From contig MU646605.1 in the NCBI GenBank assembly GCA_026770585.1, positions 88,410 through 113,329 of the forward strand: a DNA stretch of 24,920 nucleotides. The letters are read 5' to 3'. Origin of the DNA: Baffinella frigidus. Its lineage: Eukaryota; Cryptophyceae; Cryptomonadales; Baffinellaceae. Shown in pieces: positions 164 through 24,216 of this stretch; position 1 is the first letter of the stretch, and each line of letters opens with the position of its first letter. Under the pieces are notes generated by a model. That model was not told the origin of the DNA, searched no databases, and worked only from the letters and a program-made list of their open reading frames with translations. Position numbers and translations under genes: made by a program.

Positions 164-3100
164 CGATCGATCTCGCCGCCAAGTTCGCGGCGGATGCTCT
201 CCATGTTCGCGCGGTTCTTGATCTCCTCCTCCTGCCTGATGTGCCGCACCCGATCCTGTGCGAGAGTGAGAGAGAGAGCGTTGAGAAAGAGAGGAGAGAG
301 ATAGAGATAGAGATAGAGAGAGAGCGAGAGAGCGAGCGAGAAAGAAGACTTTGTCTGAATTTTGCTCTCCATGTTCGCGCGGTTTTTGATCTCCTCTTCC
401 TGCCGTATGTGCCGCACCCGATCCTGCACCGTACAGTTTACCATACGATACGGAATACGTAGATCGAGACGCGGGTCGCACACGACCCAGTCTTGTCCAC
501 TCAGCTGAGTCGTAAACCACTCGACAGGTACCGACCCGGTCTTGTCTACTCAGCTGAGTGGACAAGACCGGGTCGTGTGCGACCCGCGTCTCGATCTACG
601 TATTCCGTGTCGCATGGTTAACTGTACCGGTGCATTCACCACACCACACAGCGGGCTTGTTAGATCGGTCCATTTGTTTTCGTGGTATTAATGAACAATT
701 TCTCGGTACAAAGACATCGTGTTGACCTTCTTTTGATCTCATCATCCTGCCTGGTATGCCGCACCCGGTCCTGTACCATACGGTACAGTTTATCATACGG
801 TATGGAATACGGTAGGTCCTAGGCTAGACGCGGTCCCAGGAGCCCGTGCGATGACAATCCTAACCCCCACAAACCACCGTCTCTGAGACTCACGCGCCAA
901 CAAACGCGGGCCATAGGGCACTTTCCAAGGATTTTCAAAGCAAAAAAAATTTTTCTGGATGATTGAATACCTCGGTACTATCCAAATTTGGCAATACACG
1001 TTTTGTGTGGAGTGGTGAATACCTCGGCAGTCTTCTCGGTCTGCTCTCCGATATTTTTCGCAATACATCTATTACAAAGCGCAACACCATCTTGGTCTGA
1101 ATTGGGTTTTCATACCTCGGTAGTATCCATGTTTTGCAATACAGGGTTTTCCTGGATTGGAGAATACCTCGGTAGACTTCTGGGTCTGTTCGAGCGCCTG
1201 TTAACAATCGCCGCGCTGCATCTATCTCCCTCTCTCTCTCTCTCACACACACGCACTCTCTCTCTTTCTCTCTCTTTCTCTCTCTCGCTCTCTCTCTTTC
1301 TCTCTCTCTCTGTCTCTCTCTCTCTTTCTCTCTCTATATATCTATATCTATCTCTCTCTCTCTCGGAAAATACCTCGGCAGACTTCTGGGTCTGTTCGAG
1401 GGCCTGTTCAAACTCGCCGCGCAGCTGGTTCCGCAGCTCCTCCTCGGCCCTCGCCTGAAAACACCACCCGTCAGAAAACGCGGATAGTACCGAGGTAACC
1501 GTCAGAAAATGGCGCTTTGCCAGCGCATGCCGTCAACATGCTAGCTTCCTTGCCCACGCCTGCAAGGAACACCCGTCAGCAAGCAGCATCCATCAGAAAA
1601 GAAAGAAAAAAGCACCAGAAAGCAAGCCCCATCAGAAAGCAAGACCCATCAGAAAGCAAGACCCATCAGAAAACAACACCGAGAAAAGTTCTTGCCAGCC
1701 CACCATCCGGGGACACTTCGTTGATGCGTGCGCAGAAAACACGATCCATCAGAAAGCAAGACCCAGAAAAGTTCGTGCTTGCGCACCAGGCAACAATTGT
1801 GCGTGCACTGAAAACGAACAGTGGTCACCACTGAAATCCTCCACCCCTTATTTGTTATGGGTGAGTACTTGAGGCTTGAAGGACCGTTGTTAGGACATTT
1901 CAACTGAAGGCTTGCAGGACCCTTCTAGGACCTTTACGAGAGTAATGAAGAAGAAGATGGGAGGTGCTGGGGGACTTTTCCCTCACGGGGGTCACTACTG
2001 AAAACGCACAGGGGTAACTACTGACCCCCCCCACCCCGTATTTTTGATGGAAGGGGGGGTGGTGGGGACCTTTTCGGCGAGGGTGTCGTTGAGGCGCTTG
2101 GTCGACTTGTTGATCAGCTCCGTGATCTGCATCAAACCATGGCATCAGGACAAGGCCTCTGCATTACACCATGCGAGTAGTGCCCTGCATTCCTTCCACC
2201 ACAGAATCAGAACAAGTGCTCTGCATCGAACCGTAGGATGCTTGATCTGCACCACACCAGCGGATATGTGATCTGCATCCCACCATAGAATCAGAACAAG
2301 TGCTCTGGATTGCACCATAGCAGAAGCTCACGTGGCGTTCGGCCAAGCGTCGCGCGAGTAAGTGGGGCTTATGCGTCTGGTCGCATGACGCTCCGCCGAG
2401 CGCCATTTTCTGGAAAATACCTGCGAGGCCCGGCAGAAGAACACGCCAGGACGTAGGTCTCTCACTTCTCTAAAAGACTAGAGCAGGGCACGTTTGCAGC
2501 TGTAGGGAGGGGCCTGGCTGACAAAACGAGGCCTGGCTGAATAATACGCTTTTTGTGGTCGTCAGACATACTTACACCATGCCGGACACGCAAACACGAT
2601 AACGGTGACCTGGTTGTCCAAACCGAGGCCTGACAGACAAGAAACCCCACGAGACCTTGCTGAAGAATACGGATCTTCGGGGAGCGGCTCCTCAACGCAG
2701 ACAGGGCGGAGCCATCTGCCTACTCCCCTTCGAGGGTAGGCAGAGTGTAAAGTGCCGGTACCGACCGTTGGCTTGTTGACGGCATGCGCTGGCAAACTAC
2801 GGAGATCCTCTCCAATAAATCGGAATTACTCGAATTGTGAAGGGGGAGACCAACCTGGTGATCGTGGTCGATGTTCATCTTCCATGCCAGTCTGGGTTAC
2901 GAGCCTGGGCAATCTCATCCCGCCGAGTATTCATAATGCATACGATTTTGGTGTATCTTGAGGGTAGAAATAAGACAGTCGTCTATCTAGACTTCATTTA
3001 GAGCCTTAAGATACACCGGAATCGGACCGGAGATCCCCGAAATCGTATTCATTATGAATACTCTTCCTGATGAAATCAGGTTGTGAGTGTAGCGTTGAAA

Positions 3101-5823
3101 GGGTGACCTGGTCATCAAGGCGTAGGGGACCAACCTGGTGATCGTGGTCCATCTTCATCTTCTCGACAACCTTCACGCTACACGCTACACGCTACACCCA
3201 TCCTCATATCCAGCCTGCGCCTCACGAAGCTTAGCTGACGAACACGCTGGTCAGGGGTTAAGCGACCGATATTGCGTTCGCACGAGCAGCTGACACGGAG
3301 TCCAGTAATTACCACACAAAAATGCGGTGCTGGCGCAGGCAATTCGGCAAAAAAAAGCAACATCTCTGACCTGGTTATCATGGTCGATCTTCATCTTCTC
3401 GACGACCTCGCCCTTCTCGCCCTGCATCAGCTGCATCGTCTCCGCGAACGCCCGCGTGTTCTGCGCGTTGAAGGATTAGGGTTTAGGGTTTAGGGTTTAG
3501 AATTTAGGACTTATGCCTTAGGTATGAGGGTTTGGGGTTTTGGGTTGAGAGTTTAGGGTAGAGGATTCAGTGTTTAGGGGTTAGAACACTAAACATGGAC
3601 ACCTCTCCACCGCTAAGCCCCGGCGTCAAGCCATATCCAACCTAGCGAATCGCATCAGCCCAACCTGCTACCTACGACGCATCACCCACCCATCGCACCC
3701 GCTGTCACACTGACTCACCACAGTGACACCCTACAGAGAAATCGCAAGGCGGAGATGCCAGGGATGTGGGAAGAGCAGTTACTCTCGCGCGAGAATATGC
3801 CAGAGATGCTTCCTGGGTAGCAGTTGCCCCCGCGCTGCTACAGTGGCAGCGCGAGGGCGACGGGGGTAGTGATCCATCTGCTGATGGATCACTCCTGGAA
3901 GCCTGCGTCGTGGACGTGCGGAAAATCCATGTAACACTGTGGCACGTAACTTGGACTAAAGAGTCGGGATCACACCTGGAAGCCTTCTGGGATTTTCGGT
4001 GGTCCCAGCTCAGTACATGTTATCAATAACGCAAATGTCTCTCTCTATCTATCTTTCTCTCTCTCTCTTTCTCTCAAGGAAGCTTCAATCGTCGACGGGC
4101 GGAGAATTCGGCTAAACACCTTCCGACTACACAGGAGCTTGGACTACACAGTCGGGATCACTCTGGGCTACCCATGCCGTGCGGATGCGCTGTGGGGAGT
4201 GTGGTCTGGTTCGACTACTCTCTTGCCTCACAGAGGTGTATCAAGGAGTCGGGATGCGGACACGCCTCTCTGTTCGACGGTTGCCAAGTGATTTTTTGTT
4301 TCAGGTGTGAGGTGAAGGCTCCCTCCTCCTCCTCTCCCTCCTCGGGTAGCACAGACGTTGGATCAAGCGCTAGGGGGAGGGGACCTGCTCGAACTGTTCC
4401 TTCATCTCCTTCATCTCCTTCGTCATATCCTGGATTCTTCGCTCGAACTGATTCACCAGCACCTGTGCCCAGCAGGAGAGGTCACGGTTAGCTCGGGCGG
4501 GGGGCTGCGCGCAGGGTTGATAATTCTCGCATAACCCCGGAGAATTGGGGGGGGGATGTGTGCAGGGGTTGAGACTCGGTCGCCGCTGGAATTGATTTGA
4601 CAGCATCGGTTTGGAGCAGGATCCAACAGCATCTGTGCAGAGCAGGAGGTCACGGTTATAGGGGTTCTCGCATTCTGGAGGCCACGAAAACAATCAAACG
4701 GTTCCAAACGTTGAAAGTTTAGCACCAACACCGTCAACTGCTGGCGTTGTTCGACTGTTTGGGAGTGGCCACCAAATGCGACCACCGCTCTAGAGGGGGG
4801 GCGGCTGCGTGCAGGGTTAAGAATCGTTCTCCGCGACGGCTGGCATGGAGCAGGAAAGTGGTAAGTGGTACACCAGGGTCTCTCGGCTTGTATCTGCACC
4901 TCAACCGGGCAGGCTTTACACCGGGCCGGTAACACTCATGGGGAGATTGTGCACCAGGATTAGCAATATCAAGACACTAGAATAGACGTGGTCGTGTCGA
5001 CCTTCTCGCGCTCCTTGACGCGAAGCTTGTACTCATTGAAGTCGTTGTACGCGTTCTTCTTCTCCGCCTCATGCTGCTTCCCCTGTGCTCGCAGCATCTC
5101 GGCCGCGTCCACCTTCACCCCGTCCCCGCCCGCCGCCGCTCGCGCCTGCCGCCGTCGGGGGGTCAGCGCAATGCCACCACGCCTGCCTTGTACCTCGCCA
5201 GCGTCGTGGGGTGACGACGCGCGTTGGGCTGACGGGGGGAGGGGGGGGAGTGCATGCGGCGCTCAGAGGGGGAAAGAACTCGGAAGGCATCCAGTGCGTG
5301 GATACACGGGTAGAGACAGGCAGGATTCAGGGAAGGGCTTGGTCGCCGGGAGGGAGGGAGTTGGGGCTTGCGACTTGGCCCCGTCACCCAGGTAGGGGCC
5401 AGGGCAAACGGACAGAGGGGTCTCGCGACCAACTGCACATAGGGTTGAGAAAGAAAGGAGAAGGGGATGGGGCTCGTGCCTCGTTGATAAGCGAGTTTGC
5501 TTCGTCGACAACGCGCCCGAGCTCCACCTCGAACGCTTCTGATAGGTACTGCTTCTCGTACTCCTGGGCGCGGCGCGGGGCGTCAGAATCAGGGATTCGC
5601 TGGTGAGCGACACGTGTGCGCTGCCTGGCGGGACTTGGCGCTAGGCGTTCGGCATCTGCTGCCTCCTGGATGAAGGCCAGCGGGGAGGGGGAGGGGGAAC
5701 CTGCTCTTCGTTCTTGTTGACGAGCATCCCGATGACGCGTGTAAGCTGCGCGATCTTCTTTGACATCTTGTAGTACGCCTCGTCCATCCACGGGGGAAGC
5801 TCATCGTCATCAAGTTTACTCAT
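164..5823 (-). CDS. FAM184-like coiled-coil protein, 5' part, 8 exons, runs off left edge
   Basis: Exons in transcript order: 5823-5701, 5563-5480, 5145-5002, 4462-4385, 3460-3371, 2126-2070, 1454-1374, 255-164. They give about 249 residues. All junctions are phase 0 except the last visible donor (phase 2). Start ATG is at 5823-5821. Residues 19-37 read KMSKKIAQLTRVIGMLVNK, which closely matches the conserved N-terminus of animal FAM184A/B. Later exons are charged heptad-like helices (NQFERRIQDMTKEMKEMKEQ; RVRHIRQEEEIKNRANME), so a long coiled coil is expected. The molecular role of the family is poorly known and no enzymatic motif is visible. Donors are GT except exon 2, which uses GAG|GCACGA. 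Introns hold foldbacks, (CT)n tracts and decayed copies of exon edges. It is divergent from the WIPI/ATG18 gene. The family call is from the N-terminal motif; later exons are placed by open frame, phase and splice sites, and small exons could be missed. Confidence 0.72.
262..345. repeat. (GA)n-rich microsatellite
   Basis: Imperfect GAGA/GATAGA tract in FAM184 intron 7, immediately upstream of exon 8 in transcript sense. It sits between true exon 8 and its first partial copy, and creates low-complexity spurious ORFs. Confidence 0.8.
360..432 (-). repeat. Partial copy of FAM184 exon 8 with its acceptor
   Basis: The minus strand reads an AG acceptor then codons for DRVRHIRQEEEIKNRANMES, identical at protein level to the first 20 residues of true exon 8 (255-164). 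It then diverges into non-matching sequence. It lies upstream of the true exon. It could be an alternative or decayed exon; no matching donor is evident. Confidence 0.65.
425..633. mobile_element. Large foldback element (about 86-bp inverted arms)
   Basis: The left arm at 425-510 and right arm at 548-633 are near-perfect inverted repeats (for example CGCGGGTCGCACACGACCC against its complement). The 37-bp spacer leads into a second, inner palindrome around CTCAGCTGAG. No coding capacity. A related left-arm fragment recurs at about 770-805. This could be a MITE or a foldback made by local inversion. Confidence 0.7.
722..780 (-). repeat. Second, more decayed copy of FAM184 exon 8 start
   Basis: The minus strand has GGTACAG then a run similar to DRVRHTRQDDEIK, matching the first 13 codons of exon 8 with substitutions. 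Like the copy at 360-432 it lies upstream of the true exon and is preceded by the same foldback-arm sequence. Confidence 0.55.
960..1222 (-). repeat. Tandem decayed copies of FAM184 exon 7 end plus donor
   Basis: True exon 7 ends GAACAGACCCAGAAG...GAG|GTATTTTCC. Copies of this end with a GTATTC-type donor are seen near 1165-1215 (best) and 1017-1050. Short GAG|GTAT remnants lie near 966-975 and 1111-1120. All are downstream of the true exon in transcript sense. Confidence 0.6.
1222..1366. repeat. (CT)n microsatellite
   Basis: Long CT/TCTCTTTC tract with CACACA and TATATC interruptions in FAM184 intron 7, directly downstream of exon 7. Leu/Ser-rich ORFs through it are not genes. Confidence 0.9.
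1590..1790. repeat. CATCAGAAAGCAAGACC minisatellite
   Basis: At least five degenerate copies of CATCAGAAAGCAAGACC, with a larger unit including GAGAAAAGTTCxTGC seen twice. It is in FAM184 intron 6. No gene seen at 1460-2065. Confidence 0.65.
2128..2330 (-). repeat. Decayed copies of FAM184 exon 6 acceptor edge
   Basis: True exon 6 begins GATGCAG|ATCACGGAG on the minus strand. Copies GATGCAG|ATCACATATC and GGTGCAG|ATCAAGC occur near 2240-2275, with an AGAATCAGAACAAGTGCTCT unit repeated at 2206 and 2290. All lie upstream of the true exon in transcript sense. Confidence 0.5.
2400..2850. other. Intronic sequence without a recognised gene
   Basis: Part of FAM184 intron 5. It contains a diverged direct repeat around 2494-2550 and 2629-2685 (GAGGCCTG.CTGA..AATACG) and, at 2772-2796, one arm of an inverted repeat whose partner is at 1515-1540. 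No convincing exon was found on either strand. Confidence 0.5.
2848..2887 (-). repeat. Copy of FAM184 exon 5 end plus donor (distal)
   Basis: The minus strand encodes KMNIDHDHQ then GTTGGTC, matching the end of true exon 5 (KMKIDHDNQ|GTCAGA). Downstream of the true exon. Confidence 0.6.
2912..3077. mobile_element. Palindromic MITE-like element, family A copy 1
   Basis: Terminal inverted repeats contain GAGTATTCATAATGNATACG. An inner inverted segment GGTGTATCTT pairs with AAGATACACC. No coding capacity. A second copy lies at 8576-8699. Confidence 0.75.
3125..3172 (-). repeat. Copy of FAM184 exon 5 end plus donor (proximal)
   Basis: The minus strand reads VVEKMKMDHDHQ then GTTGGTC. It is nearly the last 12 codons of true exon 5 (3460-3371) plus a donor, lying downstream. 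It shares the GTTGGTC donor with the more distal copy, so the two copies are closer to each other than to the true exon. Confidence 0.65.
3474..3590. repeat. TTTAGGG telomere-like array, intron 3' end
   Basis: Degenerate TTTAGGG units end about 10 bp before the acceptor of FAM184 exon 5 (AG at 3462-3461, minus). The transcript sense is CCCTAAA. Confidence 0.85.
3590..4380. other. Intronic sequence with short hairpins and a CT tract
   Basis: FAM184 intron 4. It has small palindromes (GTGATCCATCTGCTGATGGATCAC split around its centre, near 3870-3893), a (CT)n tract at 4037-4075 and a repeated AGTCGGGATCAC unit (3962, 4150, partial 4235). No exon was recognised. Confidence 0.5.
4466..4860 (-). 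repeat. Decayed copies of FAM184 exon 4 acceptor region
   Basis: True exon 4 is preceded on the minus strand by TGACCTCTCCTGCTGGGCACAG. A copy TGACCTCCTGCTCTGCACAG|ATGCTGTTGG occurs at 4625-4655. A third CTGCTCCATG/CCTGCACGCAG unit lies near 4800-4850. All lie upstream of the true exon. Confidence 0.5.
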
Positions 5824-6121: not shown

Positions 6122-9100
6122 ATGTCGAGCGGCGGGATCGACGTCAGCGGACTGGAGAAGAAAGAGGACAACGATGTGCTCTTCATCGGATTCAACCAGG
6201 ACCAGAGCTGCCTGGCCGTCGGGGTGTCCAAGGGTTTCAAGGTCTTCAACTGCTCGCCGTTCCACGAGCAGGTTTCGCGCGCTATCTTGTTGCGATGTTG
6301 TTCGCAGGGAGGTGTAACAAAGCAGGACCGCTGGGCTCTCTTACCAAAGGGATTGGATGTGACACATCCAGGATAATCGCCGCCATCTCTGGCAGTCAGA
6401 TCGGCCAGCTGTCTGCCAGTGCACATGGGGCACCTCTAAACCTGCAACACACTCAAATCCAAATGATCGCTCTCAGGGCTTTCCACACACGTTGCCTCGC
6501 GATTGGCGCAACTCCTGGTTGCCGCCACCCCTGATTTGTACCGTATGTCGGCGGAACCCGGGCCACACGGAGAGGCGCAACCCCAGCATCGCCAAACTGA
6601 GCCTCGAGACTGCGAAATCCACACGGTGTGCCCCCCACTGAGCGTTCTCTCGTAGACCGGCAATGAGTAAACCCCGGTGGTTGCAGGTCAACAGCGAGAT
6701 GGAGGGCGGGGGGATCCGGCTGGTCGAGATGCTGTTCCGATGCAACATCTTCGCTCTCGTCGGCGCCGCGGACAACACGCGCTTCCCCCCAAACCAGGTG
6801 CATTCAGATTCATGAGCGGGACGACTCAATTTAAACCGTGTTTTTGCTATCTTGGGATGGGTTTTCGTATATATTAAAGCTGTGTCGAAGCTAATCTAGC
6901 AAAATAAGAGAGTCACCACCCTTAAGATAGCATAAAAGGCGGTTTAAATTGAGTCGCCCCGCACACTAAGATGTATCATGTTGAGGGGAAGAGAGGTAGG
7001 GGGAGAGAGTCAGGTGGGGCGGAGGGGAGGGTGCGGGTCAAAGGGTGTTGAAAAGGGGTGTCCACAACCAATCTCGCCCAGTGTGGTTGCAAGAGAAGAA
7101 CGTAGGATTCATACGTGGCAAATCTGAATTTGGACTCCACAAAAACCGCCTCCAAAGTTTGGAGACGGTTCATCGCGGGTAGATTCAGGGGGGGAGGCGT
7201 CTTGACCTTGGAATGGATCGCAGGTGATCATATGGGATGACAAACGGAAAAAGGACATAGGCCAGCTCTCGTTCCGGCATGATGTCAAGGTGAGTCGTCC
7301 TTTCCCAAAGCTTCACCGTAAAACATTCCCGGGGTGTGACATTCCTGCAACCACACGCGCCTTCGTCTGGCCGTTTGCTGCACTATCTAAAATGCTGTCT
7401 TGGACATGGATTTGATGACACGACCGCACCCTCTTGACACACCGATTCATTTTCACGTTTTTTCGTTCCCCGATCTCCCGACCTGATCTCGAAAAAATGC
7501 GCTCTCGCCCGAAACCGACAATATCCGTCCTCCGGTTCGCAACACTATTGCTCCTACACGTCCTACAACACTTCGCCTCTCCCACGGCATCTCCCAGCAG
7601 ACTCCAACGCGGTCCAGGATGTTTTACCTTAAGTCAACAAAGCGGATCCTCCGCAGTAAGTTGCCATTTCGTTTAGATGGACCTGATCTGGGAACAGGCA
7701 ATTGACTTGAGGCGATGTCTTTCAGGGGGGAGTTGGCGTAGGCGAAATTTGCTGGCTCCGAGTGGACTCTCTCACAGCTGGCCGTGTTGTTCCTAACTTG
7801 GCAGCGGAAGCGTGCTCTGGTGACCACCTGGGGCTTGCAGGTGTAACCCCCACATACTAACCCCCACATCCTGAACCCTCAACCCGTAAGCAGGCGGTGC
7901 GGCTACGGCGAGACAAGGTGGTGGTGGTGCTGGAGTACAAGGTGCTCGTCTTCAACTTCTCGGACCTCTCGCAACTTATGGAGATCGACACCATCTCCAA
8001 CCCCAAGGTCTGAACCCTAAACCCTAAACCCTGACACCTAAACCCTAAATTCGAAACCTGAAACCTGAAACCCGAAACTCTGACCCCCCCCTCCCCCGTC
8101 CTCCCACCTCCACGCGTTTAATCGTTGGACATCAGGCGGGTTTGTAAAAGAGGGCATCGGTTTCACGGGGCGCCGGAACTCGACGCCCCCGGTGAGTACA
8201 CATCGGTGCAGATCGGAGGCAGGCAAAACGATCAACGTTCAGGGCAAATTGGGGGCTGGCCAAACGAGCAACTTTGTTGAAATCGAGACCAGGTGGGGGC
8301 CAGGGACTGTAACGCTGATGGCGCGCTTTGTGTCGCAGTGGATGTGCGCTCTGTGTGCGTAGGAGCGGCCCTGTGTCCACACAGTCAGCACTTACCCGGG
8401 TTGTGCGGTGTCGCGGTGTCGCAGGGGACGAGTGGCATGTGCGCGTAGCGACGCACCTATATCCCTAGGCCCTACAGTAAGCGTCTTCGTGGGTTGTGTG
8501 CTGTGCGCACGAGCTGTGTGGTCTTGTGTACATAGAAACGGACCGATATCCCGAGGCCCTCCAGTAATCTCATCCGGACGAGTATTCATAATGAATACGA
8601 TTTCGGGGATCTCCGATTCGATTTTAGTGTATCTGGAGGCTCTGAATGAAGTCTAGATAGACTAAATCGTATTCATTATGAATACTCGGCGGGATTAAAT
8701 CGGTGACCCGGGCTGGGCGGTGTCGCAGGGGCTGTGCGCGCTGTGTCCCGCACCCAATCACACGGTCCTCGCATGCCCCGGGACGCAGAAAGGACAGGTC
8801 CTGCCCCCCCGCCCCCCCCCCCACGAGTTTTTGGGGAACCGATAAATTGCATCATCCATCGCCCCCCCCACCCCACACACAATCTTGCTCCTGTACCGTC
8901 GCTCCTTACCCGACTTTAGGGGAGCCACCTCGAGGAGATGATTGTAGGACATGCCCGCCTCGGGAACAGAGTTGGATATACGCGGCCTCTGCGCCGCAGC
9001 TCGGAAGTCTGCTGAAAGATCCGGTGGAGAGGCGAACAGTTGTTCGCACAACATGGTTGTTGCGAATCAGGGGAGGGTCTCCAGAGGGGCAATCTCTCTT

Positions 9101-12100
9101 GCACGCCGCAGTCGACGGAGCAGCGGTCGGGAGGATACCAGGGGTGGGTGGCTACATGCAGGCGAGAGGCTCTGTGGTTGCACACGTCCACGTTGGGCCT
9201 CTCTAGGCGGGCTGATCGGTTCCGACCACCAGCAACCCGCTGCAGCTTATATCCGGATCGGGTACTGTAGTAATTTTCTGCTAAACCGAAGAAATCTCTT
9301 CGGTATCTCCCGTCAGCAATTCGAGGTCCCTAGGGTTTCCTACTGTAGGGCCATAGGAAAGATTGTTTTGCCAATAAAATACCCGAATCCTTGCGAGTAC
9401 CCGGTATAAGCTGCTACGGGTTGCTGGTGGGAGGCGGGCACCGGGTGATCGCATACGCTGCGCCCTAAACGGTTGAGGGTTTAGGGTTTGGGGTGCGCAC
9501 ACTCGAAACCTTACACCCTACACCCAAAACTCCAAGAGGCCGCTCGCCGGGAGCTCACATGCGCTGCTGCCCCTCTAACCACACGTCCACAGGTAGGCAG
9601 GACCAATCACAGAGGTCGCGCAGAGGTTGCTCACATGCGCTGCTGCCCCTCTTACCACGCGTCGGCAGGTACGGTTGGAGCTGTCGGAGCTGCGCCGCAC
9701 GTTTTCCCTCGCCGCGCACACTGCTGCCCTCTCGTATGCCCCCCCCCCCCCCTTCCCTGTCTCGCCGTTTCTGTGGGTATGGATTCCAGTGTAGAGGGAT
9801 TGCAGTGCTGGGGAGTTCCAGTGTGGAAGAAGGAGGACTCAGCGAGGTACCCACTTCCCATTTTATCAATGAAGCCCGCTGATGCCAGCGGGTGAGATTG
9901 CTCAACACGTTTCAACGATCAGCCCGGGAGAGCTGACTCCCTATTTGGTCCCATCTAATCGAAACGTGAGACATCAGGTGTCTGGCGCTGACGCTGGATG
10001 GGACACGACTCGCGACCGCGTCCGAGAAAGGGACAATCCTCAGGGTCTTCGATACTCTCACCGGGAAACTCTTGCAGGTCGTGCCCCGAAAAACGCCCTA
10101 ACCCCTACGCGCTAAAACTGGGGCCCTGAGACCCTGCATCGATTGTGTTAAAAGCGACGTTGAGTTCCTACTCTCGCGACTTTCCAGCAGACCTACCACA
10201 CGGTTGACTACGAGGGTTTCGTCGACCCTGATTTCAAGGGGTAACGTGACCAAATTGCACCAGCACATCTTTTTCTAAGTTAATGGCAAGTTGACTTTTG
10301 ATGAAAGGTTCGTAGTTCACCGTGTGGCACGAGAATCCTGACGCACCGCCCTCTCATCTCTGCCCGTGCACCACACGTTTCGCCTCAACCCTTACTCCTC
10401 ACCTTCAAGCTTCACCGCAAAGCCTCTCCTCGATATCTCAAGGGACAGCACGGTTCATCCGGTGTATAACTCGACCCGGAACGCAGAGGGTGCGGGCAGG
10501 GAGAGACGGGGGTGCAGACGCGCGTTCTCCTTGGTGTGAGCACCTAGTCTAGGACGAGCCCGCATCCCGCCGTTAGATCGCTTCTACTCGGGTTAACCCT
10601 ATTACACCGACTGTACTCGGGGTAAAGAATATACACAGTTACATCGACTGTACTCGTGCCAAACTTTTTACTTACACGTCCAGGACGAGCCCGCCTCGCG
10701 CCGTTAATTCTATTCTACTCAGGGTGAACCCTATCAAGATGTGCTGACACGGAATGGTGGCGCAGGAGGTACGGCGCGGCGCGCAAGCAGCCGACATCTG
10801 CGGAATCGCCTTCTCCCCCACCTCCTCGCTCCTCTCGTGCGCCTCCGTGCGCGGCACCGTGCACATCTTCTCGCTCGCTGAGGCCGCGGCTGCCGCTCAG
10901 ACCAACGGGTGCGCCCCCCTTCTCCTTTGCTCCACTCGGGAACACCGTCTTCACCCGCCACACCACGGGTCCGGTGCACCGACCCCTTGGGAGGGGGGCT
11001 CGTGGCAGTGTAGGGAGAGAGGCGTCGAGTCAAGGGCATCGTTTGACGCCGATGCGAATGTTGGGGAGCAGGAAGGGGCAACATGCCGACTGCGAGAAGA
11101 AGGAACAGCCTTGACGTGTTGCTTTTTCTTCCCCCCTTGATCATTCTGGACCATAGCTTGGGCACACCGACGCCCCTGACGAGAGAGGTGACGTGCCTCC
11201 CTGGCAGGGAGGGGAGACACGACGACGTCTCTGGAGAGAAGAAGGAGCAGCATGCGGCGTCGAATTGCCGCTCGAGCCTCTCCTTCATGGGGAGTGTCGT
11301 TAACTACTTCAACTCCGAATGGTCTGAACCCTAAACCCCAAACCCTGCACCGTAAACTATAAACCCTCAACGTTTGGTCTCGCCCGCGTCGCGCCTATCC
11401 GCATTTTGCGTCCAGCACGCCACTTGTTAGGTACACGAGAGCGTGTGTGGTTCGTGTTTGGGCGAAGAGTGGTACTGTGTAGCTTCATGGCCAGCGTTGA
11501 TCCAAACCCTCAACACTGAACCCTCAACCCTACACCCTAAACACTCAACCCTAAACTTTTGGTCTCTCGCCCACGCCGCGCGTGTCCTCGGAAGCCTTCC
11601 ATGTGTTGTGCTGAGATGTGCTGCCAGCGGAGGGGGGTCACGTGTCTGCAACAAACCACAGTGTTAGACACACTCTCGTGTGCGTGGTTGTTGTCCCCGT
11701 GGTGCCTCTCCCTGGCAGAATGTGCTGACGAAGCGGTGCCTGTGACCAGGTCGTTCGCACGGTTCCGGCTGCCTCACGTGTCAGCGACACGTGCCCCCCC
11801 CCCCCGAGTTCATGTTCCCCGACACACTTTTTGAAAGCAGCGCTCGGTGGGCAGGTCGTTCGCGCGGTTCCGGCTGCCAGGGACAGCGCACGGCAACACC
11901 ATCTGCTCCTTCGCCTCCGATCCCAACACCATCCTCGTCGTCACCGCCTCTGGGTTATCACACTCCCTCTCACACTCTTCGCTCAGCCACACACACACGT
12001 GTGGTACCGTGACGAAAGGAAACTGGTCAGGCTCAGAAACAGGCGTAGTACCAGAAAAATGTCTGATTAGTCAAGAGTCGATGGCCTCTCCTCCGGATAC

Positions 12101-14495: not shown

Positions 14496-14572
14496 GATCG
14501 AACGTGTTTGCGGAGATGGCAGCGTGAGGTAGGCCGAGAGGCGTCACTCAACCTTGGGGAGGGGGATAGGTG

Positions 14573-14694: not shown

Positions 14695-14784
14695 GTGCCT
14701 GGGCCTTGGGAATCGTGTGGAGCGGGTGGAGGCAATGGGAAATACCGTGTGGTGGGGCTGCAGGGGTACGCGAGGGCCCCGCCG

Positions 14785-15145
14785 GTTGTGTGTGTGTTAA
14801 TAAAGGCGTTCAAGGGAGTAGGAGGTTGGTCAAAGACTTGGGACGGCGCGTGCGAAGAGCTCTTCCCACAACGGAGAGTGGAGGGTTTCCCTGCACGTGC
14901 GGGTGCTAATGGCAGCACGAGGTTGGTTCCAGGCTTGGGACGGCACGTGTGAGAACCTCCCCAGGAATGGTGTGTGCCACGATGTATGCTCGCAGGTGTA
15001 CGCCCTTCTCGGGGCAGATTGGCCTTGGCGCAATCGACTCCACCCACACCGGAGAGTGCGGGGGTTCCATGCACGGACGCTGCACATTTCCCGTGTTTAC
15101 CGACTGCGTGTGTGTTAATAAAGGCGTTCAAGGGAGCAGGAGGTT
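14785..15145 (+). repeat. Direct duplication in the convergent intergenic region
   Basis: TGTGTTAATAAAGGCGTTCA occurs at 14792 and 15111, each followed by GGAGxAGGAGGTTGG. CGGAGAGTG.GGG.TTCC.TGCACG is also repeated (14873, 15050). No coding homology was recognised. Confidence 0.65.
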
Positions 15146-15156
15146 GGCTGGAGGCT

Positions 15157-15277
15157 TACAGGGGTACCTCGCTCATAAGAAACCGTCCCCCCCCTGGGAC
15201 CTCCATAGGGCCCTAGGCATAGCCCTACTGTAGGGTCCTAGGGGGGCCCAGTTTCTTATGAGCGAGGTACCCCTGTA
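15157..15277. mobile_element. MITE-like family D copy 3
   Basis: Intact TACAGGGGTACCTCGCTCAT terminus and its complement at the right end, with a CCCTACTGTAGGG core. Confidence 0.9.
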
Positions 15278-15542
15278 GGCCGGCACGTGTCAGGACCTCC
15301 TCGGGAAGCGCTACTGTAGGAGCCTTTTGGCATGCCGCGCAATTCCTGGAGCGAATGCATGCCTGACGCGCCTTTGATCAGCAACCCCAACCACCCCGGA
15401 GATACCTTTGCCGTGTTTACCGACTGCGAGGCACACACGTTGCAACGCGCGCAACCACTCGCAGCACACGACCCTACAGCCGTACGTGTGCGCACGCGGC
15501 GGGCGACCAGGGTCCTGTGCAGCCCTGCGGAGTGACCCCACG

Positions 15543-15663
15543 TACAGGGGTACCTCGCTCATAAGAAACCGCGCCCCCCTAGGACCCTACAGTAGGCCTA
15601 TGCCTAGGGCCCTATGGTGATCCTAGGGGGGGGGGCGTTTCTTATGAGCGAGGTACCCCTGTA
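15543..15663. mobile_element. MITE-like family D copy 4
   Basis: Terminal TACAGGGGTACCTCGCTCAT and its exact complement. The inner palindrome is CCTAGGACCCTACAGTAGG. It is the most symmetrical copy here. Confidence 0.9.
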
Positions 15664-15895
15664 CAGTCGAGCTGATGACACGAGACGGACTCGTACTAGG
15701 TTTTCATATCCGAGCACCCAACCTTCCCTTTCCGCCATAGACCTATCTGACAAACACACAACCTATCCGATGTCGGTCTTTCACGGAATCTATCCGATGT
15801 CGATCACTCACGGGTGATGTCCCCTCGATCTGACGAACAAACGATCCATGTGACGAATGTCCACCTCTGAGATGAATATCTCTCCAGTGGCCAGT

Positions 15896-15975
15896 AGGCT
15901 CATACGCCCTACCGTAGGGCCCTAGGACCTGCCTGGGACCTCTTGGCGGTCAACTTTGACCGCCTGGCCACTTAA
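15896..15975. mobile_element. MITE-like family E copy 2
   Basis: AGTGGCCAGTAGGCTCATAC at left and CCTGGCCACTTAA at right. The right end is 20 bp beyond the uL15m stop codon, so it probably lies in its 3' UTR or polyadenylation region. Confidence 0.75.
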
Positions 15976-15995
15976 GGGATACTGAGGCGAACCCT

Positions 15996-16005
15996 CTAGG
16001 GAGGA

Positions 16006-16041
<36 letters not shown>

Positions 16042-19000
16042 GCCGCCATGTGCGCCTCAATTTGTATGGCCCTGGCATCAAGCTGCGCCTTCACGTCCTG
16101 CCACGGGAGGAAAGTCAGGAGGCCGATGTCTGCGTACAGGGGCACCTCGCTCATACGAAACTGCCCAGCACCCTAGGGGTACCTCGCTCATAAGACCCCC
16201 CCCCCCCCCCTAGGACCACCATGGGACCCTAGCTAGGCATAGTCCTGCTGTAGGGTCCTAGGGGGGTGGCGGTTTCTTATGAGCGAGGTACCCCCAGTGA
16301 TGGAGGTGGCGAGCATGCGTGGTGAGCGTGCGTGACGCTAAGGTTCTCGCATGCGAAGCGGGGCCTGTCTCACGCAACTCCTGCGGTGGTCCAACCACGA
16401 TGCGCTCGATGCCTGTGAAACGCATCGCAGGACCGGCAAGCACGCAAGGGAATATGGTGGGCATGCTGGTTTCGATGCGTATTGCGCATCGCACCCGATC
16501 GCGCAAAGCTCGCGGCAAGGGCCGGGGAAGCCCACGTGCGGGAGGGAAAACATGGTACATAGGGTATCTGGGCTAAGAAACCAGAACTTAAGAACACAGA
16601 CCGGTTCCAGATACCCCTGTAGGCAAGTTGGATTCGATCCGTAATAAACGCACTTTCTCTCCAAGGGAGCAGACGACGGGACGCGGGTTTGTTTTCCGTC
16701 CGGGTGGGAAAACAGGACGCCCGCGGGGGGCAGCTTCGGCCACGCGATCGTGGGCCGGGGACGGCCAGGGGAACACACGGCGGGACGAATCGGGAGTGGA
16801 GGGACGCATGCGAGCCTCTACTCTGCCGCGACTCAAGGTCACTTGAAACCACTGATTTGCTATCTTTGGGGTCTCGCGGTTACGGAAAAGGCCACGTACG
16901 GGAGGGAAAACATGGCGGGCAAGTTTGATTCGATCCGTAAGCAACGCAATTTCTCTCCAAGGGAACTGACGACGGGTCGCGTGCCGAGTGGCGGGGCATG
17001 TTGCTTTCAGGGTTGGGAGGGAGACCTTGTAGTGCTCGGGGTACTTCCACATCAGCTTGGGGGGGGGCGCGGCGCGGCGCGGGATCACGTGGAACTTAGT
17101 GGGCTTCAGGAGCGCTCGGAGCCCCAGCCGGTTGTAGTACGCCACCTGCCCGGGGGGTATGCCCTCGGCCTCAACAGCCGAAAACACTATACGTGGGAGG
17201 GCGGGGGCAGGTTGGCGGGGTTGGCAGGGCGATATGCAGTTATAGTCTCCACATCTCTTATACGTAGTTATAGTCTCTTATAGTCTCCACATCTCGTACA
17301 TGTAGTTATAGTCTTACATGTAGTTGTAGTCTCTTACATGTAGTTGCAGTCTTAATCCACATCTCTTACATGTAGGTATACCTACTCTACTCGACATCCC
17401 AGCGCACATCGACAGTGCCGTCCTTGGCCTCAATCACCACACGGGCCTTGGCAGACAAAACATTTCAACGTGGGCCGGGGGGTGGGTGACGGGTGGCCGG
17501 GTGTTCTTGGTCCCAACAGCCCCCCTCCAGACGACCGCGGGGGGTCAAGGGAGGCTCCAGGGGTTACTCACGAATACGGACACGCACCGCCCTAGGGTCC
17601 TACCGGAGGGCTAGTCCTAGGAGCATATGGGTGGGTCCTACCGTAGGGCTAGTCCTAGGAGCATATGGGTGGGTCCTACCGTAGGGCTAGTCCTAGGAGC
17701 ATATGGGTGGGTCCTACCGTAGGGCTAGTCCTAGGAGCATATGGGGGTGGGTCCTACCGTAGAGGTGGTCCTAGGAGCATGTGGGGGAGGGTGGGGTGAA
17801 CCTTGACGGTACCGCCCTTGGCCTCAATGGCCACGCGGGCCTTGGCACACACACAACTTCAACGTGGCCCGGGGGGGGGGGGGGGGGGGGGGGGGGCCCC
17901 CCCCCCCCCCCCCCCCTCAGGACGTGGGCGGGGGGGTGAAGGGAGGATACAGGGGTTACTCATGAAAACGGACACGCACCATTCTGGGGTCCTACCGTAG
18001 AGGTGCAACTAGGAGCAGATGGGGGTGGGCGGCGCTAACCTTGACAGTACCGCCTTTGGCCTGATGGCCTCTCGGGCCTTGGCAGGAAAAAAACTTTATC
18101 CTGGGCCGGGTGGCCGGGTTCCCTTGGCCCCTATCCCTTAAGTGACCAGAAGGTTCATACGCCCTACCGTAGGGCCCTATGACCTGCCTAGGACCAGGCG
18201 TGGACCCCCTGGCCACTTAATGGATAACCCCCCTCCAGACGTGAGCGGAGGGTTGCGGGAGGGTGGGGTGGACCTTGACGGTACCGCCCTTGGCCTCGAT
18301 CGCCACGCGAGCCTTAGCACACAAACAACTTCAACGTGGGCCGGAGGGGGGGGGTGGCGGGTGGCCGGGTGCCCTTGGCCCCAATAGCCCCCTCCAGACG
18401 TGGGCGGGGGGGTGAAGGGAGAGCCCGGGCTCACGAAAGTGGTGGGCCCAAGACTCGGACAGAGGTAGGAGTCGTTACACGAAAGGCACGTGGACCAGCT
18501 ACATTGGGTGGGCGGCGCGGGAGGATACAGGGGTTACTCATGCAAGCGGACACGCACCGCCCTGGGGTCCTACCGTAGAGGTGCAACTAGGAGCAGATGG
18601 GGGTGGGCGGCGGTAACCTTGACGGTACCGCCCTTGGCCTCGATGGCCTCGCGGGCCTTGACAGACACGTCGGATACCTCCACCTGCACCGCCCGATCGA
18701 TCTGCCGTCCCCGCGCCACGTCAGACCCCTCACCGAGTGTAAAGTGACGGAGGAGAGAGAAGGGGGAGACCACCGATCCGCATGGTGTCCCCGCGCCACC
18801 ACTCTCACGTAAGTCAACTATCTACTTGAGTAGTTCCCTTAAGTTGGCCTAGACTCATAACCTGCGAGTCTAGGGTAATTACCCGCACTACCCAACCGTC
18901 AGCCTCCTTACCGATTGTAAAGTAACTGATGATAGAAGGAGGAGACCACTGTTATCCCCGCGCCACCACCTGTCAGCCCCTTACTCAGTGGGGGTGCATA

Positions 19001-22000
19001 CATGGCGGCCGTGTTGGTAGAAAATATCTCACCCTCACCGAGCCGCTCTCCGCCTCCGCCATACTACGTCAACACCACGGAAACAATCTCTGCAATGGGC
19101 GCATCACGATACTGAGCGCAGGCAGGCTGATATGACGCTGGGGGTGTCTTGCCTTCCACACGTTTCATTACGTGTCGCGGGTAGGTCAGGTCTTGCTGGT
19201 GACATCAAGACAGGCTAGAGCCCGTTTCGCGACTGATCCTGCGAGAGGTTTGGTCCTCGGGGTCTTGGCAATTCTCGATCCGGCGCCCTGCTTTCAGCCG
19301 GCTCCGGATCTCAGCCACTACCCGCGAACTCGCAAAAGTTCACTCCCGACAGGAGAGCTTTCACCCGGGTTGACCGACTATTTCTCAAGTTGCCACGCTG
19401 GGTCCACGGTACAAATCGGACAACTTTGGCCCGGGCTCACCAAATCGGTGAGCGCACATAGACTGCGATGGAGGGTGCGGTGGGGTGTGTACGTGTTTGG
19501 TGCCGCGGGAGAGAAGCTTGATGCCCTTCTTGACGGTTTTGGCAATGCATCCGCAGTCGCGCAGGTCCTTCATTGTGATCATCTGCCCACCGCGCGATCA
19601 AGACAGTCAGCGCGTGTCAGCATTCGGCAGCGCGTGTCAGCATCCGTCAACGCGTGTCAGCATGCAGTCTGCTCCAAATCTGAACCGCGTGACCCCTGGG
19701 ACCGCAGCAACTGCACCGTGATCATCTATCAAGCGTGCGATCCAGGAGAATAAGGTTTAGGGTTGACGGTTTAGGGTGCAGGGTTGACGGTCTCGGGTTG
19801 AAAGATTAGGGTTTAGGGTGTGGGGTTTGGGGTTTGGGGTTTGGGGTTTGGGGTTCAGGGTTCGGGATTTGGGGTTTGGGGTTTAGGGTTTGGGTTTAGG
19901 GGTTTAGGGTTTAGGGTTTAGGGTTTAGGGTTTAGGGTTTAGGGTTTAGGGTTTAGGGTTTAGGGTTTAGGGTTGAGGGCTGAGGGTTGAGGGTTGAGGG
20001 TTTAGGGTTTGGGGATTAGGATACAGGGTAAAGCGCTTGGGGTTTAGGGTTTAGGGTTTAGGGTTTAAGGTCTAGGTCTAGGGTTTAGGGTTTAGGGTTT
20101 AGTGTAGAGGGTTTAGGGTTTAGGGTTTAGTGTAGAGGGTTTAGGGTTTAGGGTGTAGGGTGTAGGGTGTAGGGTTCAGGGTTCAGGGTTTAGGGTTTAG
20201 GGTTTGAGGTTGGGGTTTTAGGTTTTAGGGTTTAGGGTTTAGGGTTTGGGGTTTGGGGTTTGGGGTTTGGGGTTTAGGGTTCAGGGTTTGGGGTTTAGGG
20301 TAGTTGCACCTTGGTGGTGTCAAGGCGGCCGGCTTTGACAAACTTCATGAGCTCGTCGACGTTGAGCGCCGCCTGCACGCGCAGCCGGAGGAGTAAGCCC
20401 CCCTTTCGACATAGCGGACTTCGAAGGCATGTTCGAATAACCCTTGAGCGATAAGACCTGCGACCTTACGGTAGGCAACCTGTGGCTGCGCCTGCAGGAG
20501 AAGCCAGCGGAGGAGTCTACTTTCGGAACAAGACGGAACCTGACCCGCTATCGTACGCTCCCCACGCGGAAGGGCAGGATGTACATGCTATGTTAGGCAT
20601 CAAATGATGCTACATTACGCCTTTTTATCAAGACAGATTCTGGCGCCTTTTTATCAGGACAGATTCTGTTGCGAGATGAAGTTAGCCCCCCCCTGACAGC
20701 GGCCGCCAAGACGATAACGACGAAAGCAACAGTCGGGCTGTGGACCCTCTTGCAAACGTACGCCGACGAGGCGCATCGGAGCCAAATCGCACGGTTAGAG
20801 GACCGACGCCACCCTGAAGGCAACTCAGGGGCAAATCTTAAGTCAATCTCCCACAGATGCCACCCGATTCTGGTGGCATGTGTATGGGAGTTGACTTCAC
20901 AAACCACCGATTTTCCACACAGTTTCCTCCAGGGTGGTTGATGGGGGGGGGGGGCAGCCGATCCATGACGCCTCTGGTATGTTTTTTGGGATGTTGTTTA
21001 TATGAAGATTGTTTTGGGGGACAGAGAGGAAGATTGTTTTGGGGGGGGCTGGTGGAGACCCTGGGCAGGGCGGGCAGGGTACCAGCTCTGAGAGGAACGC
21101 GTGCTTGTTGTGGAAACCGCGCTTCGGGTGACGTCTGATGAGCGGTGTCTGCCCGCCCTCGAACCCCAGCAGCCCATGGTTGCCTGCGCCGATCCTGGGC
21201 TGTCATTGCTCAACCCTCACCAATCGCCCCTGGGGCCTGCGTCCGCATTGTCACACGCCAGGGGACAACGCGTGTCGATGTCCCGCCGCTAAACGTGGCA
21301 GTGTTCATCCGCCAAGATCAACCGACGAGATCGTCGAGAACAGGTTGTGTCCCTAGCAGCGTGATCCCCGTCCACTAGCAATCCCAAGTGGCTCAATTAG
21401 TGCCCTGCAAGGTCTTCGATTTTACCTTGGATCGGGGTCGGATCCGACCCCGATCCAAGATAAATCGAAATTGTCCCGGGCCACTATTTGAGCCACCTCC
21501 AAGGGCTAGTGGGTGCTCGCACCTGCCCGCGAGTACTGCCCCTTGTGCCCACGCGTCGCAGTCTTTCCCCGCCCGCTTCCGATACCCCTGCGCGCCGCAC
21601 CGCCTTGCCACGCTCAGCTGCCGCATGCATCGCGCCAGTGATGCTCTGTTCGGGAATCCGCCCACAGCCCCCCTGCACGAACGCGCCGCCCCGTGCACTG
21701 AGCCCTCGGCTGGCGAGAAGCTAACATGTCCGCCTGCAACGGACTGTTCCTGTGCCCCTGCTGGCATCTTCTGCACTGCCCCAGCCAAGCCTCTGCGACG
21801 CTGCGGAGGGCTCTCCCCATCTCGAATCTCCAGAAACCGCAAACGTTTCTTTCCCTCCTCTGCAGCTCCGTTCTTGCAGCAGGGGCGAGGGGGCAGCGGG
21901 GTCGTTGGGTGGGCGGGACCTGCCCACCCTCCTTCGCTTCTTCCGCGATCCAGGGTTGTCCCGCAGATTCGTCAGATGGATCTGCTCCATCTGCACAACA

Positions 22001-22564: not shown

Positions 22565-24216
22565 ATGGGCTCGACCGTCCTCCGCTCGATCGAGTGGATC
22601 AAGATCGGGCAGAATGACCCTGGACCTGCCGAGCATGTTGGAGCGTCAGAACTACAACGCTTCTTCCGCCACTCGGGGTTCGCGCTGGCGTTCCTCGAAG
22701 CGAAGCGCCGCCGCCGCCTGCGGAACCCCTCGCGCGACGTGACAGTATCGGTAGTCTTTGAGGGGCGCACACCGGTCGACTTTGGCCACCCGTGCGACTG
22801 GAAGGAGGGGGTGGCCGCGCGTGTCCTCGGCGGAGGGACGCTCTCCGTTGCCAACCTGCACTTCGCCGTCAGCCACGAGGGCGGCGACGACGACGAGTTT
22901 GCCGCAGGTCCCCGCACTTCAACCCCCGTTCCCGCCAAGTACCATAAAAAACATGGGTCGTGGATGCTTCACCGCTGAAAAGGCTCTGTTGGGAAGGCGA
23001 GGCTAACGCGCGACCGCCCTCTGGAGCACAGGTGGTGAGGACCCTGACGCGGAGATCTCGATCCAATTCGCTGGAGTCACCCACTCGGGCGGCCTCTCCT
23101 ACCAGGTCGCTCTCTCCTCCGCCCTGGCAAACCGCAACAGCCTGTCCCAGCGCTGTTTGCCACCGTTTGCCGCAGAGGCCTCGAGGACCCCGCATGGCCG
23201 CATGTCCTCTGCGCCACTGTGGAGCGGGGCGAACTGCACCAGTCAAGGTCGCGCGGCAGAACAGCCAGGTGTGGTGACAGGGTGCTGGCAGGGTGCTCTG
23301 CGACGGTGCAGGAAACGCGGTGATGGATACGCTTGGAGCGCTTGACCGCAGGCGTGAGGTCGTTTCCGGTAGAGGCGCCGACGCTGGATGCGGCGGTGGA
23401 GAAACTGACAGATGCGGCGGTGGAGAAACTGATGGAGGCACACGTTGGTTCGCAGGAGGATCGGTTCGTGTGCAAGACGGGGCTGGAGCGGGAGACAGAG
23501 CTCAAGGGCCTGGTCCTCGCGCCGCTTGCTTTCTTCGGGGTATGCCTCCTACCTCTGCCTGCGTTTAATTCTGGCTCGCCCTAAGGCTTTCATTTTGCCC
23601 CTTTGTTCTGGATTTCTGCTCTTGAATAGTTTCAAGGGCGAGCCAGAATAAACTGAGGCAGAGCTAGGCCTCCTCCTGGCGCGCGGCGTGCCTGTGGAGG
23701 GGTCAGGAGCTGTGTTTCGCCCCGGACGTCACGTGGCAGTGCGCCCTGAATACTGCGGCACATATTTGAGAAGGGTGAATCTTGAGGAGTGGTATCTTTG
23801 ATTCCACGCCGGCAGGCTGCCATGCCAGGCCACCACTCTGCATGGTGTATTTGTTACCAGGACATGTGCGCCCGAAGTGTAGGGTGTCCTGTTAAACCAG
23901 CATGGCTGAGTGTCCCGCTTCTCTGGGATACGGCTTTGAGAAGAGTGAATGTTGAGGAGTGGGGCGAGCGTGGTGTGGGTTGTGGGTTTAGGGTTTAGGG
24001 TTTAGGGTTGTCTCAGGAGTTGCCGGATATCCAGCAGGATCGGGGTTGGTGTGGCGCTGAGTGTCCCGCATCCCTGGATGGTGCGAGCAGGTCTACGACG
24101 GGCACGGCGGGGAAGCCACGGCAGACTACCTCGAAAGTAGACTGCACGCCTCGTTCGTCGAGGAGCTCAAAAAGCTGCAGCGCACGCGCGTGTGCATCGC
24201 GACTGCTCTCGCGCAG
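22565..24216 (+). CDS. PP2C-family Ser/Thr phosphatase, N-terminal part, runs off right edge
   Basis: Proposed exons are 22565-22907, 23032-23143, 23359-23539 and 24091-24216, giving about 254 residues with matching phases (1, 2, 0, 0). The catalytic call rests on VYDGHGGEATADYLESRL directly after LAPLAFFG across an intron with a GT donor at 23540 and an AG at 24090. FFxVYDGHGG is the metal-binding signature of PPM/PP2C phosphatases, with Asp at about residue 215. Upstream, LSSALANRNS and QEDRFVCK resemble the segment leading to the first metal-binding Asp of the family. In between sits a 24-nt in-frame duplication (DAAVEKLT/DAAVEKLM). The first 114 residues, starting MGSTVLRSIEWIKIGQ, match nothing I recognise. 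Boundaries of exons 2 and 3 are uncertain: exon 2 could end near 23150 and exon 3 could start at 23449 (EDRFV). The rest of the catalytic domain lies beyond the window or in exons I did not find. Confidence 0.7.
23568..23650. repeat. Inverted repeat in PP2C intron 3
   Basis: TTCTGGCTCGCCCT (about 23570-23583) pairs with AGGGCGAGCCAGAA (about 23636-23649). The following AACTGAGGCAGAGCTAGGCC recurs with changes at 24338-24358. Confidence 0.75.
23740..24090 (+). repeat. Diverged direct repeats upstream of PP2C exon 4
   Basis: TTTGAGAAGGGTGAATCTTG at 23766 against TTTGAGAAGAGTGAATGTTG at 23934. GCTGAGTGTCCCGC occurs at about 23908 and at 24056 just before the true acceptor (24090), so it is another acceptor-side copy. 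Three TTTAGGG units lie at 23986-24008. Confidence 0.6.

What the first reader, a model, noticed from the sequence alone, without database searches (positions are those of the whole stretch)
164..24216. Exon-edge copies obey a positional rule in all four genes
Partial, decayed copies of exon edges with their splice site flank many exons. Acceptor-plus-exon-start copies always lie upstream of the true exon (FAM184 exons 4, 6, 8; WIPI exons 5, 6, 10; uL15m exons 5, 6, 7; PP2C exon 4). Exon-end-plus-donor copies always lie downstream (FAM184 exons 5, 7, 8; uL15m exon 7). I found no exception. This points to repeated local tandem duplication across exon-intron boundaries as a way these introns grow or shift their splice sites. 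It may be an undescribed intron-expansion process, or a source of alternative mini-exons.
Basis: partly seen in the sequence, partly recalled or inferred. Interest (0 to 1): 0.88.

Follow-up and report, generated by a model that had tools for sequence, protein, structure and literature searches.

The report
Exon-edge copies from local DNA duplication
Introns in this eukaryote hold many decayed partial copies of the neighbouring exon's edge; they look like neutral debris of frequent local DNA duplication, and the side on which they lie follows from the geometry of copying DNA in place rather than from a splicing rule.

Summary
In the window, 7 of 27 acceptors have an upstream edge copy and 3 of 29 donors a downstream one, with none on the wrong side. 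Over 70 exons (window plus 20 kinase loci of the same 382-Mb genome), 57 of 58 edge copies lie on the predicted side and none covers a whole exon. Some named cases (WIPI 6, PP2C 4, part of uL15m) do not exceed chance.

The rule is geometric. If DNA across an acceptor is duplicated in place, only the downstream copy stays joined to the rest of the exon; at a donor, only the upstream copy does. Edges are not clear hot spots: 25 of 98 have a copy on the allowed side, while 22-27% of intronic or other sampled non-exonic points, and 47% of the window's intergenic points, have a local copy. Copies look neutral (41% synonymous differences; 44% expected if only the exon is constrained, 28% if neither). 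Only 1 of 47 decoy sites would extend the exon open and in frame, so mini-exons are unsupported.

The usual structure is copy-gap-copy. I read it as error-prone break repair that duplicates its flanks: known in kind, apparently dense here.

The parts
164..255 (-). FAM184 exon 8 (true exon)
   Evidence: AG/GT, frame open; FAM184 Pfam hit
363..426 (-). Copy of exon 8 start + acceptor, upstream; 94%; its 4 exonic differences are all synonymous
733..774 (-). Second copy of exon 8 start + acceptor, 88%
259..362 (.). Gap between copy and exon 8: mostly (GA)n microsatellite
1..27 (-). Short copy of exon 8 end, downstream, 85%
1374..1454 (-). FAM184 exon 7
1159..1219 (-). Copy of exon 7 end + donor, downstream, 89%
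1018..1046 (-). Second copy of exon 7 end + donor, 90%
1220..1364 (.). Gap between exon 7 and its first end copy: (TC)n microsatellite
1552..1582 (-). Copy of exon 7 acceptor region, upstream, 81%
2070..2126 (-). FAM184 exon 6
2268..2318 (-). Copy of exon 6 acceptor + 5 nt of exon, upstream, 82%
3371..3460 (-). FAM184 exon 5
3133..3172 (-). Copy of exon 5 end + donor, downstream, 90%
2853..2882 (-). Second copy of exon 5 end + donor, 90%
2912..3076 (.). Hairpin-like element (63% self-complementary over 174 aligned positions) between the two exon 5 end copies; related sequence at 8566-8701
4385..4462 (-). FAM184 exon 4
4620..4658 (-). Copy of exon 4 acceptor + 13 nt of exon, upstream, 83%
9669..9776 (+). 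WIPI exon 5
9535..9595 (+). Copy of exon 5 acceptor region (3 nt of exon), upstream, 82%; ends approximate
11855..11953 (+). WIPI exon (my W9)
11731..11773 (+). Copy of W9 acceptor + 24 nt of exon, upstream, 84%
19493..19582 (-). uL15m exon (my U5)
19703..19745 (-). Weak copy of U5 acceptor + exon start, upstream, 72%
17406..18323 (-). Region with four copies of U6 end + donor, downstream (about 17406-17457, 17785-17852, 17922-18085, 18254-18323)

Best explanation
The edge copies are remnants of frequent local duplications made in place during error-prone repair of breaks (or stalled forks). A stretch of about 25-130 nt next to the break ends up on both sides of the repaired site with a filler between: D-filler-D. 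When D happens to span a splice site, one copy stays joined to the rest of the exon and the other is stranded in the intron, so acceptor copies fall upstream and donor copies downstream. The stranded copy then decays neutrally. Shown: direct orientation of exonic copies, fixed side, copy-gap-copy structure, a neutral pattern of differences, no clear preference for edges. Inferred: the repair step itself and the claim that the gap was inserted in the same event.
For: Side: 57 of 58 edge copies are on the predicted side; 44 of these 57 had an offset that would also have fitted on the other side of the exon, so free local copying is rejected at p=1.3e-12, or 2e-7 counting one vote for each of 26 edges (correcting). 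Orientation: 50 local exonic copies direct, 0 inverted (68 exons). Structure: 437 local direct pairs in 124 kb unmasked, 1 in the block-shuffled null; only 28 have a gap <=5 nt; the 92 pairs of >=90% identity and >=30 nt have a median gap of 242 nt, and 16 of 17 pairs of >=97% have a gap of 50 nt or more. Neutrality: of 291 exonic differences 41% are synonymous, against 44% expected for a neutral copy and constrained exon and 28% if both are neutral (copies of one exon are not independent). Background: random non-exonic points have a copy on either side about equally (14.2/14.1%, 13.0/15.4%, 17.4/18.1%). Intron-side breakpoints show no strong tie to the splice site (KS p=0.20 for 26 copies, 0.03 for one per edge, n=18). 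Gaps: 23% of 69 young fillers contain a strong hairpin against 8% of 120 controls; the L041 filler is part of a dispersed element with inverted ends (by eye), and another copy of it (L048) lies between two 42-nt repeats, 98% identical, that read by eye as an exon end + donor. A 92%-identical pair of inverted paralogues differs by 73 bp, made of a 27-nt duplicate plus a 46-nt filler that is the reverse complement of the sequence just downstream, and by a further 21 bp that is another part copy of the same duplicate.
Against: No ancestral empty site was found for any exon-edge copy; in the C578 pair the polarity (gain or precise loss between repeats) is open and no exon edge was shown there. Outside exons inverted local repeats do occur (35 inverted against 180 direct pairs, besides 85 palindromic self-matches). 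One of three copies of the L041 element looked at (L049) has no flanking duplication. In L041 the element's terminal end abuts the acceptor, which would also fit an element already present before the duplication. In F8 the gap supplies a good polypyrimidine tract and the decoy does not, which fits a native gap better than an inserted one. Filler enrichment over control is modest (65% vs 53% with any feature). One start copy (L028, 66%) is on the wrong side.
Confidence: 0.6

Rival explanations
1. Proximal capture by synthesis-dependent strand annealing, as in vertebrate repair-mediated duplications: a nearby segment is copied into a break in the intron and the gap is old intron sequence.
For: Similar scale of distance and length; filler, hairpins and local templating occur; inverted local pairs exist outside exons (35 against 180 direct); F8 keeps a good polypyrimidine tract in the gap.
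Against: It predicts copies on both sides of the exon and both orientations; 1 wrong-side copy against 44 right-side copies that could have been mirrored, and 0 inverted against 50 direct exonic copies.
Confidence: 0.15
2. Ordinary head-to-tail tandem duplication followed by later insertions (hairpin elements, microsatellite growth) at the junction.
For: Gives the same side rule; hairpin elements and microsatellites do sit in gaps.
Against: 16 of 17 pairs of >=97% identity already have gaps of 50 nt or more; gaps <=5 nt are 28 of 437. Short tandem arrays were masked and offsets below 25 nt not searched, which lowers the count of gap-free pairs.
Confidence: 0.2
3. Insertion of short hairpin mobile elements that make long target-site duplications, sometimes at exon edges.
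For: The same element lies between exon-edge-like duplicates in L041 and L048; hairpins are enriched in gaps.
Against: Duplicate length varies from about 25 to over 100 nt, the fillers printed differ in kind (microsatellite, telomere-like, AT-rich, hairpin), the L049 copy has no duplicate, and extra bases separate element and duplicate in L048.
Confidence: 0.12
4. Selected decoy sites or alternative mini-exons.
For: Splice dinucleotides are kept in 48 of 56 copies that cover them (38 expected from identity); the F8 copy is in frame with all 4 exonic differences synonymous.
Against: Overall neutral pattern, 39 gapped positions and 4 changes to stop in the exonic parts; only 1 of 47 decoys would extend the exon open and in frame.
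Confidence: 0.05

Closest known systems
Repair-mediated duplications in vertebrates (Pace et al. 2009, PMC2671141; abstract and three result sections read)
   Same: Short local duplications near their template, filler and microhomology at breakpoints, splice sites and partial exons occasionally copied, two duplicated exons tested showed no constraint
   Different: There inserts within 50 bp of the template were excluded as tandem, an opposite-orientation case is reported, and 4 of 824 donors are partial exon/intron; here exonic copies are direct, side-fixed and found at 26 of 68 exons
Small tandem duplications from fill-in at breaks with 3' protrusions (Schimmel et al. 2021, PMC8355091; abstract read)
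   Same: Break-flanking DNA duplicated in place, direct orientation
   Different: A gap of tens to hundreds of nt between the copies is usual here; no genetics available
Patch-mediated break repair in rice and paired-nick tandem duplications in plants (recalled; one id look-up not held; the second seen only as a reference in PMC8153287)
   Same: Recalled: duplications flanking a repaired break, sometimes with filler
   Different: Not read; density at exon edges unknown
[quoted passage not shown] 2010, PMC2891723; passages read)
   Same: Duplication around splice-like sequence alters intron structure
   Different: There duplication of an exonic AG/GY site creates a new intron; none of 27 window introns carries a clear signature of that
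Introners (PMC9860276, PMC7789003; search listings only; features recalled)
   Same: Mobile elements and direct repeats next to splice sites
   Different: Here existing introns seem to grow; no shared intron family was shown

Membership tests
In-place (tandem-type) duplication | Copies direct and on the side forced by geometry | tested here: met
   57 of 58 edge copies on the side; 0 inverted against 50 direct exonic copies
In-place (tandem-type) duplication | Copies adjacent, gap near zero | tested here: not met
   28 of 437 pairs with gap <=5 nt
Repair-mediated duplication by proximal capture | Template within 5 kb | tested here: met
   all edge copies were sought within 2.5 kb only; 53 of 58 have an offset below 600 nt
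Repair-mediated duplication by proximal capture | Placement and orientation free relative to template | tested here: not met
   exonic copies; outside exons 35 inverted against 180 direct local pairs
Repair-mediated duplication by proximal capture | Empty site with microhomology, deletion or filler at the breakpoints | tested here: inconclusive
   only the C578 paralogue pair, polarity open
Intron gain by tandem duplication of AG|GT | Intron 5' end copies next exon start and intron 3' end copies previous exon end | tested here: not met
   27 introns, 54 comparisons: best score 11, seven at 9-11, against control 95th percentile 8 and maximum 20 of 300
Tandem or mutually exclusive exon duplication | Whole exon copied and kept coding | tested here: not met
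   0 whole-exon copies among 72 hits; neutral pattern of differences
Introner | A repeated element family that forms the intron with a target-site duplication at both splice sites | tested here: inconclusive
   one element shared by L041 and L048, duplicate absent in L049

The most novel reading that the evidence does not exclude
This lineage has an unusually active duplicate-with-filler repair process, perhaps set off by hairpin and repeat elements, that keeps rebuilding its introns out of their own exon edges. The edge copies then form a dated record of intron growth, because one partner of each pair is held fixed by coding selection.
Probability: 0.3. Interest if true: 0.6.

Novelty: new member of a known kind. 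Interest (0 to 1): 0.42.

Why it matters
The side rule looks like a biological law but is a geometric signature, and that makes it useful: it separates in-place duplication from free local copying without an outgroup. Coding selection keeps one partner of each pair fixed, so exon-edge copies can be dated and counted to measure how fast introns grow. Here 26 of 68 exons tested carry at least one such copy (9 of 31 in the window, 17 of 37 in the chosen kinase loci), so this genome would be a good place to make intron growth by repair directly measurable.

Tried and rejected
Rejected: (1) a splicing-specific rule, because random non-exonic points are copied about as often and the side follows from geometry. 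(2) Alternative mini-exons. (3) Breakpoints anchored at splice sites: looked striking in the most similar pairs, but weak once duplicate length was allowed for (KS 0.20 for 26 copies, 0.03 for one per edge). (4) Telomere-like repeats seeding splice sites: 20 of 130 edges against 264 of 2000 control stretches, not significant. (5) Intron creation by AG|GT duplication. (6) Free local capture. (7) A 60% 'whole-exon' hit in L046 is an alignment between telomere-like repeats.

Dropped or chosen rows: kinase loci were chosen by me from the 108 matches as loci with two or more near matches (20 loci, 43 matches), so they are not a random sample; 4 of 43 matches gave no usable splice sites, leaving 39 exons. 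Two kinase exons (L023:161-221 and L031:163-233) were set aside in later counts, that is after seeing the result, because their modelled edges look wrong; as modelled they gave two wrong-side hits, so wrong-side hits are 3 (2 acceptor down, 1 donor up) against 11 acceptor up and 8 donor down; they gave only internal hits. One search used 64 rows (29 start, 27 end, 8 internal) and left out 6 internal rows of those two exons and 2 end rows of L039. Only edges with <=10 masked bases entered (98). One search counted the one wrong-side copy twice in its mirror test; one search gives the corrected figures. Only 6 of 18 DEAD-box matches were fetched: L047 gave two acceptor copies up and one donor copy down, L045 one copy up that starts 5 nt inside the exon, L042-L044 none, L046 an artefact. 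Of 20 arbitrary stretches 14 read N throughout, 4 in part and 2 not at all. Telomere-like arrays, microsatellites and short tandem arrays were masked.
Full report
What was checked. The window lies in a 382-Mb eukaryote assembly at contig 301. I rebuilt 31 exons of the four genes from reading frame and splice consensus. No transcript data were available.

The observation. For each exon edge I aligned 40 nt of intron plus 30 nt of exon, forced through the edge, to 2 kb on either side, with foreign 2-kb pieces of the window as null. At a score reached by 0.36% of null comparisons, 7 of 27 acceptors have an upstream copy and none a downstream one; 3 of 29 donors have a downstream copy and none an upstream one.

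Generality. I fetched 20 kinase loci from the same genome (chosen for having two or more near matches), modelled 39 exons with splice matrices from the window, and repeated the test: acceptors 11 up / 2 down of 39, donors 8 down / 1 up of 39, null 0.6% of 2970. Two of the three wrong-side hits come from edges that look mis-modelled and were set aside after the fact; the third exon (L028) has both an upstream and a weaker downstream hit. BLAST of all 70 exons +-150 nt gave 28 start copies up, 1 down; 29 end copies down, 0 up; 14 internal; none whole. Foreign neighbourhoods gave 16 exon-touching hits, 4 of edge type, in 210 comparisons. 26 of 68 exons have at least one edge copy, 9 in the window and 17 in 12 of the 20 kinase loci; PP2C has none. 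Six DEAD-box loci gave three further edge copies, all on the predicted side and all in one locus.

Why the side is fixed. If a stretch across an acceptor is duplicated in place, the exon body remains joined only to the downstream copy; across a donor, only to the upstream copy. So the rule follows from in-place duplication and needs no further biology. It has diagnostic value: 44 of the 57 right-side copies had an offset that would have fitted on the other side of the exon too, and only 1 copy lies there (p=1.3e-12; 2e-7 with one vote per edge). Exonic local copies are 50 direct and 0 inverted. Free capture of nearby DNA, which should give both sides and both orientations, is therefore a poor fit. 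Against this, local repeats at large, most of them outside exons, include 35 inverted pairs beside 180 direct ones, so some other process also acts.

Are edges special? Random points have a local copy in 23.7% of window intron points (n=1166), 47.2% of window intergenic points (n=216) and 6.6% of exon-interior points (n=212), and in 22.5% (kinase loci, n=967) and 26.7% (other stretches, n=592) of non-exonic points elsewhere, about evenly split between sides in non-coding DNA. Of 98 unmasked edges 25 have a copy on the allowed side and 1 on the other. So a mild preference is not excluded, but there is no sign of a strong one.

Are the copies used? Of 291 differences between exon and copy in 64 aligned copies, 41% are synonymous; 28% is expected with no constraint and 44% if only the exon is constrained. 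There are 39 gapped positions and 4 changes to stop. Splice dinucleotides survive in 48 of 56 copies, somewhat above the 38 expected from identity, but only 1 of 47 decoys would extend the exon open and in frame. That one is the FAM184 exon 8 copy, whose 4 exonic differences are all synonymous; it deserves an RNA check.

Structure and mechanism. In 124 kb unmasked there are 437 local direct pairs (1 in a block-shuffled null), median copy 41 nt, median gap 237 nt, and 28 with a gap of 5 nt or less; they are uneven, from none in some loci to 82 in the window. Of 17 pairs with at least 97% identity, 16 have a gap of 50 nt or more. Gaps include microsatellite (FAM184 exons 7 and 8), telomere-like repeats (L031), AT-rich DNA and small hairpins. 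Hairpins are enriched in gaps (23% of 69 against 8% of 120), low-complexity sequence is not (26% against 23%). The gap of one L041 pair belongs to a dispersed element; a second copy of that element (L048) sits between two 42-nt repeats, 98% identical, that read by eye as an exon end plus donor, while a third copy (L049) has no such repeats. Two 92%-identical inverted paralogues differ by 73 bp (a 27-nt duplicate plus a 46-nt filler copied in reverse from just downstream) and by a further 21 bp of the same duplicate. These features suggest repair that duplicates the break's flanks and adds filler. The step from structure to mechanism is inference, and no exon-edge event has been caught with its empty allele.

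Known or new. Literature searches found relatives in kind: repair-mediated duplications in vertebrates (PMC2671141; abstract and three sections), small tandem duplications at breaks (PMC8355091, abstract), and tandem duplication or sliding at Drosophila introns (PMC2891723, passages). None of the titles and abstract starts listed by these searches reports side-fixed exon-edge copies at this density, but the lists were capped and the library holds only open-licence papers. I file it as a new member of a known kind.

Verdict. The pattern is real and general in the loci sampled; its rule is geometry; the process is ordinary in kind and, as far as I can judge without another genome for comparison, unusual in amount.

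Noticed in passing
window 3476-3584, 8010-8078, 11322-11556, 13000-13363, 19754-20301, 24581-24914: Telomere-like (CCCTAAA)n repeats are common in introns and sometimes reach within 10-20 nt of a splice site. They are not enriched there (20 of 130 edges against 264 of 2000 control), but by eye 17 of the 20 edge flanks listed have the C-rich strand as the sense strand.
   Followed up: partly
window 8008-8024 and 11322-11338: Two WIPI introns (after W4 and after W8) start with the same 17 bases, donor plus telomere-like repeat.
   Followed up: no
window 14231-16300: Repeated about 125-bp hairpin element in several direct and inverted copies, in the intergenic stretch and around the last uL15m exon.
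   Followed up: no
window 425-634: A 210-bp palindrome (86% self-complementary) between the second and third copies of FAM184 exon 8 start.
   Followed up: no
L041:2146-2213 and L026:522-592: A small hairpin of about 46 bp (AAGTTGAC...GTCAACTT, matched by eye) makes up most of the gap of two young pairs in unrelated loci; the two gaps have similar sequence in 8 and 4 other loci.
   Followed up: partly
window 5478-5479: FAM184 exon 2 seems to use a GC donor.
   Followed up: no
L050 and L051 (contig 578): Inverted kinase-gene duplicates about 8 kb apart, 92% identical over 1.55 kb.
   Followed up: partly
whole sample, 124 kb unmasked: Inverted local pairs outside exons (35 against 180 direct) were counted but not examined.
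   Followed up: no
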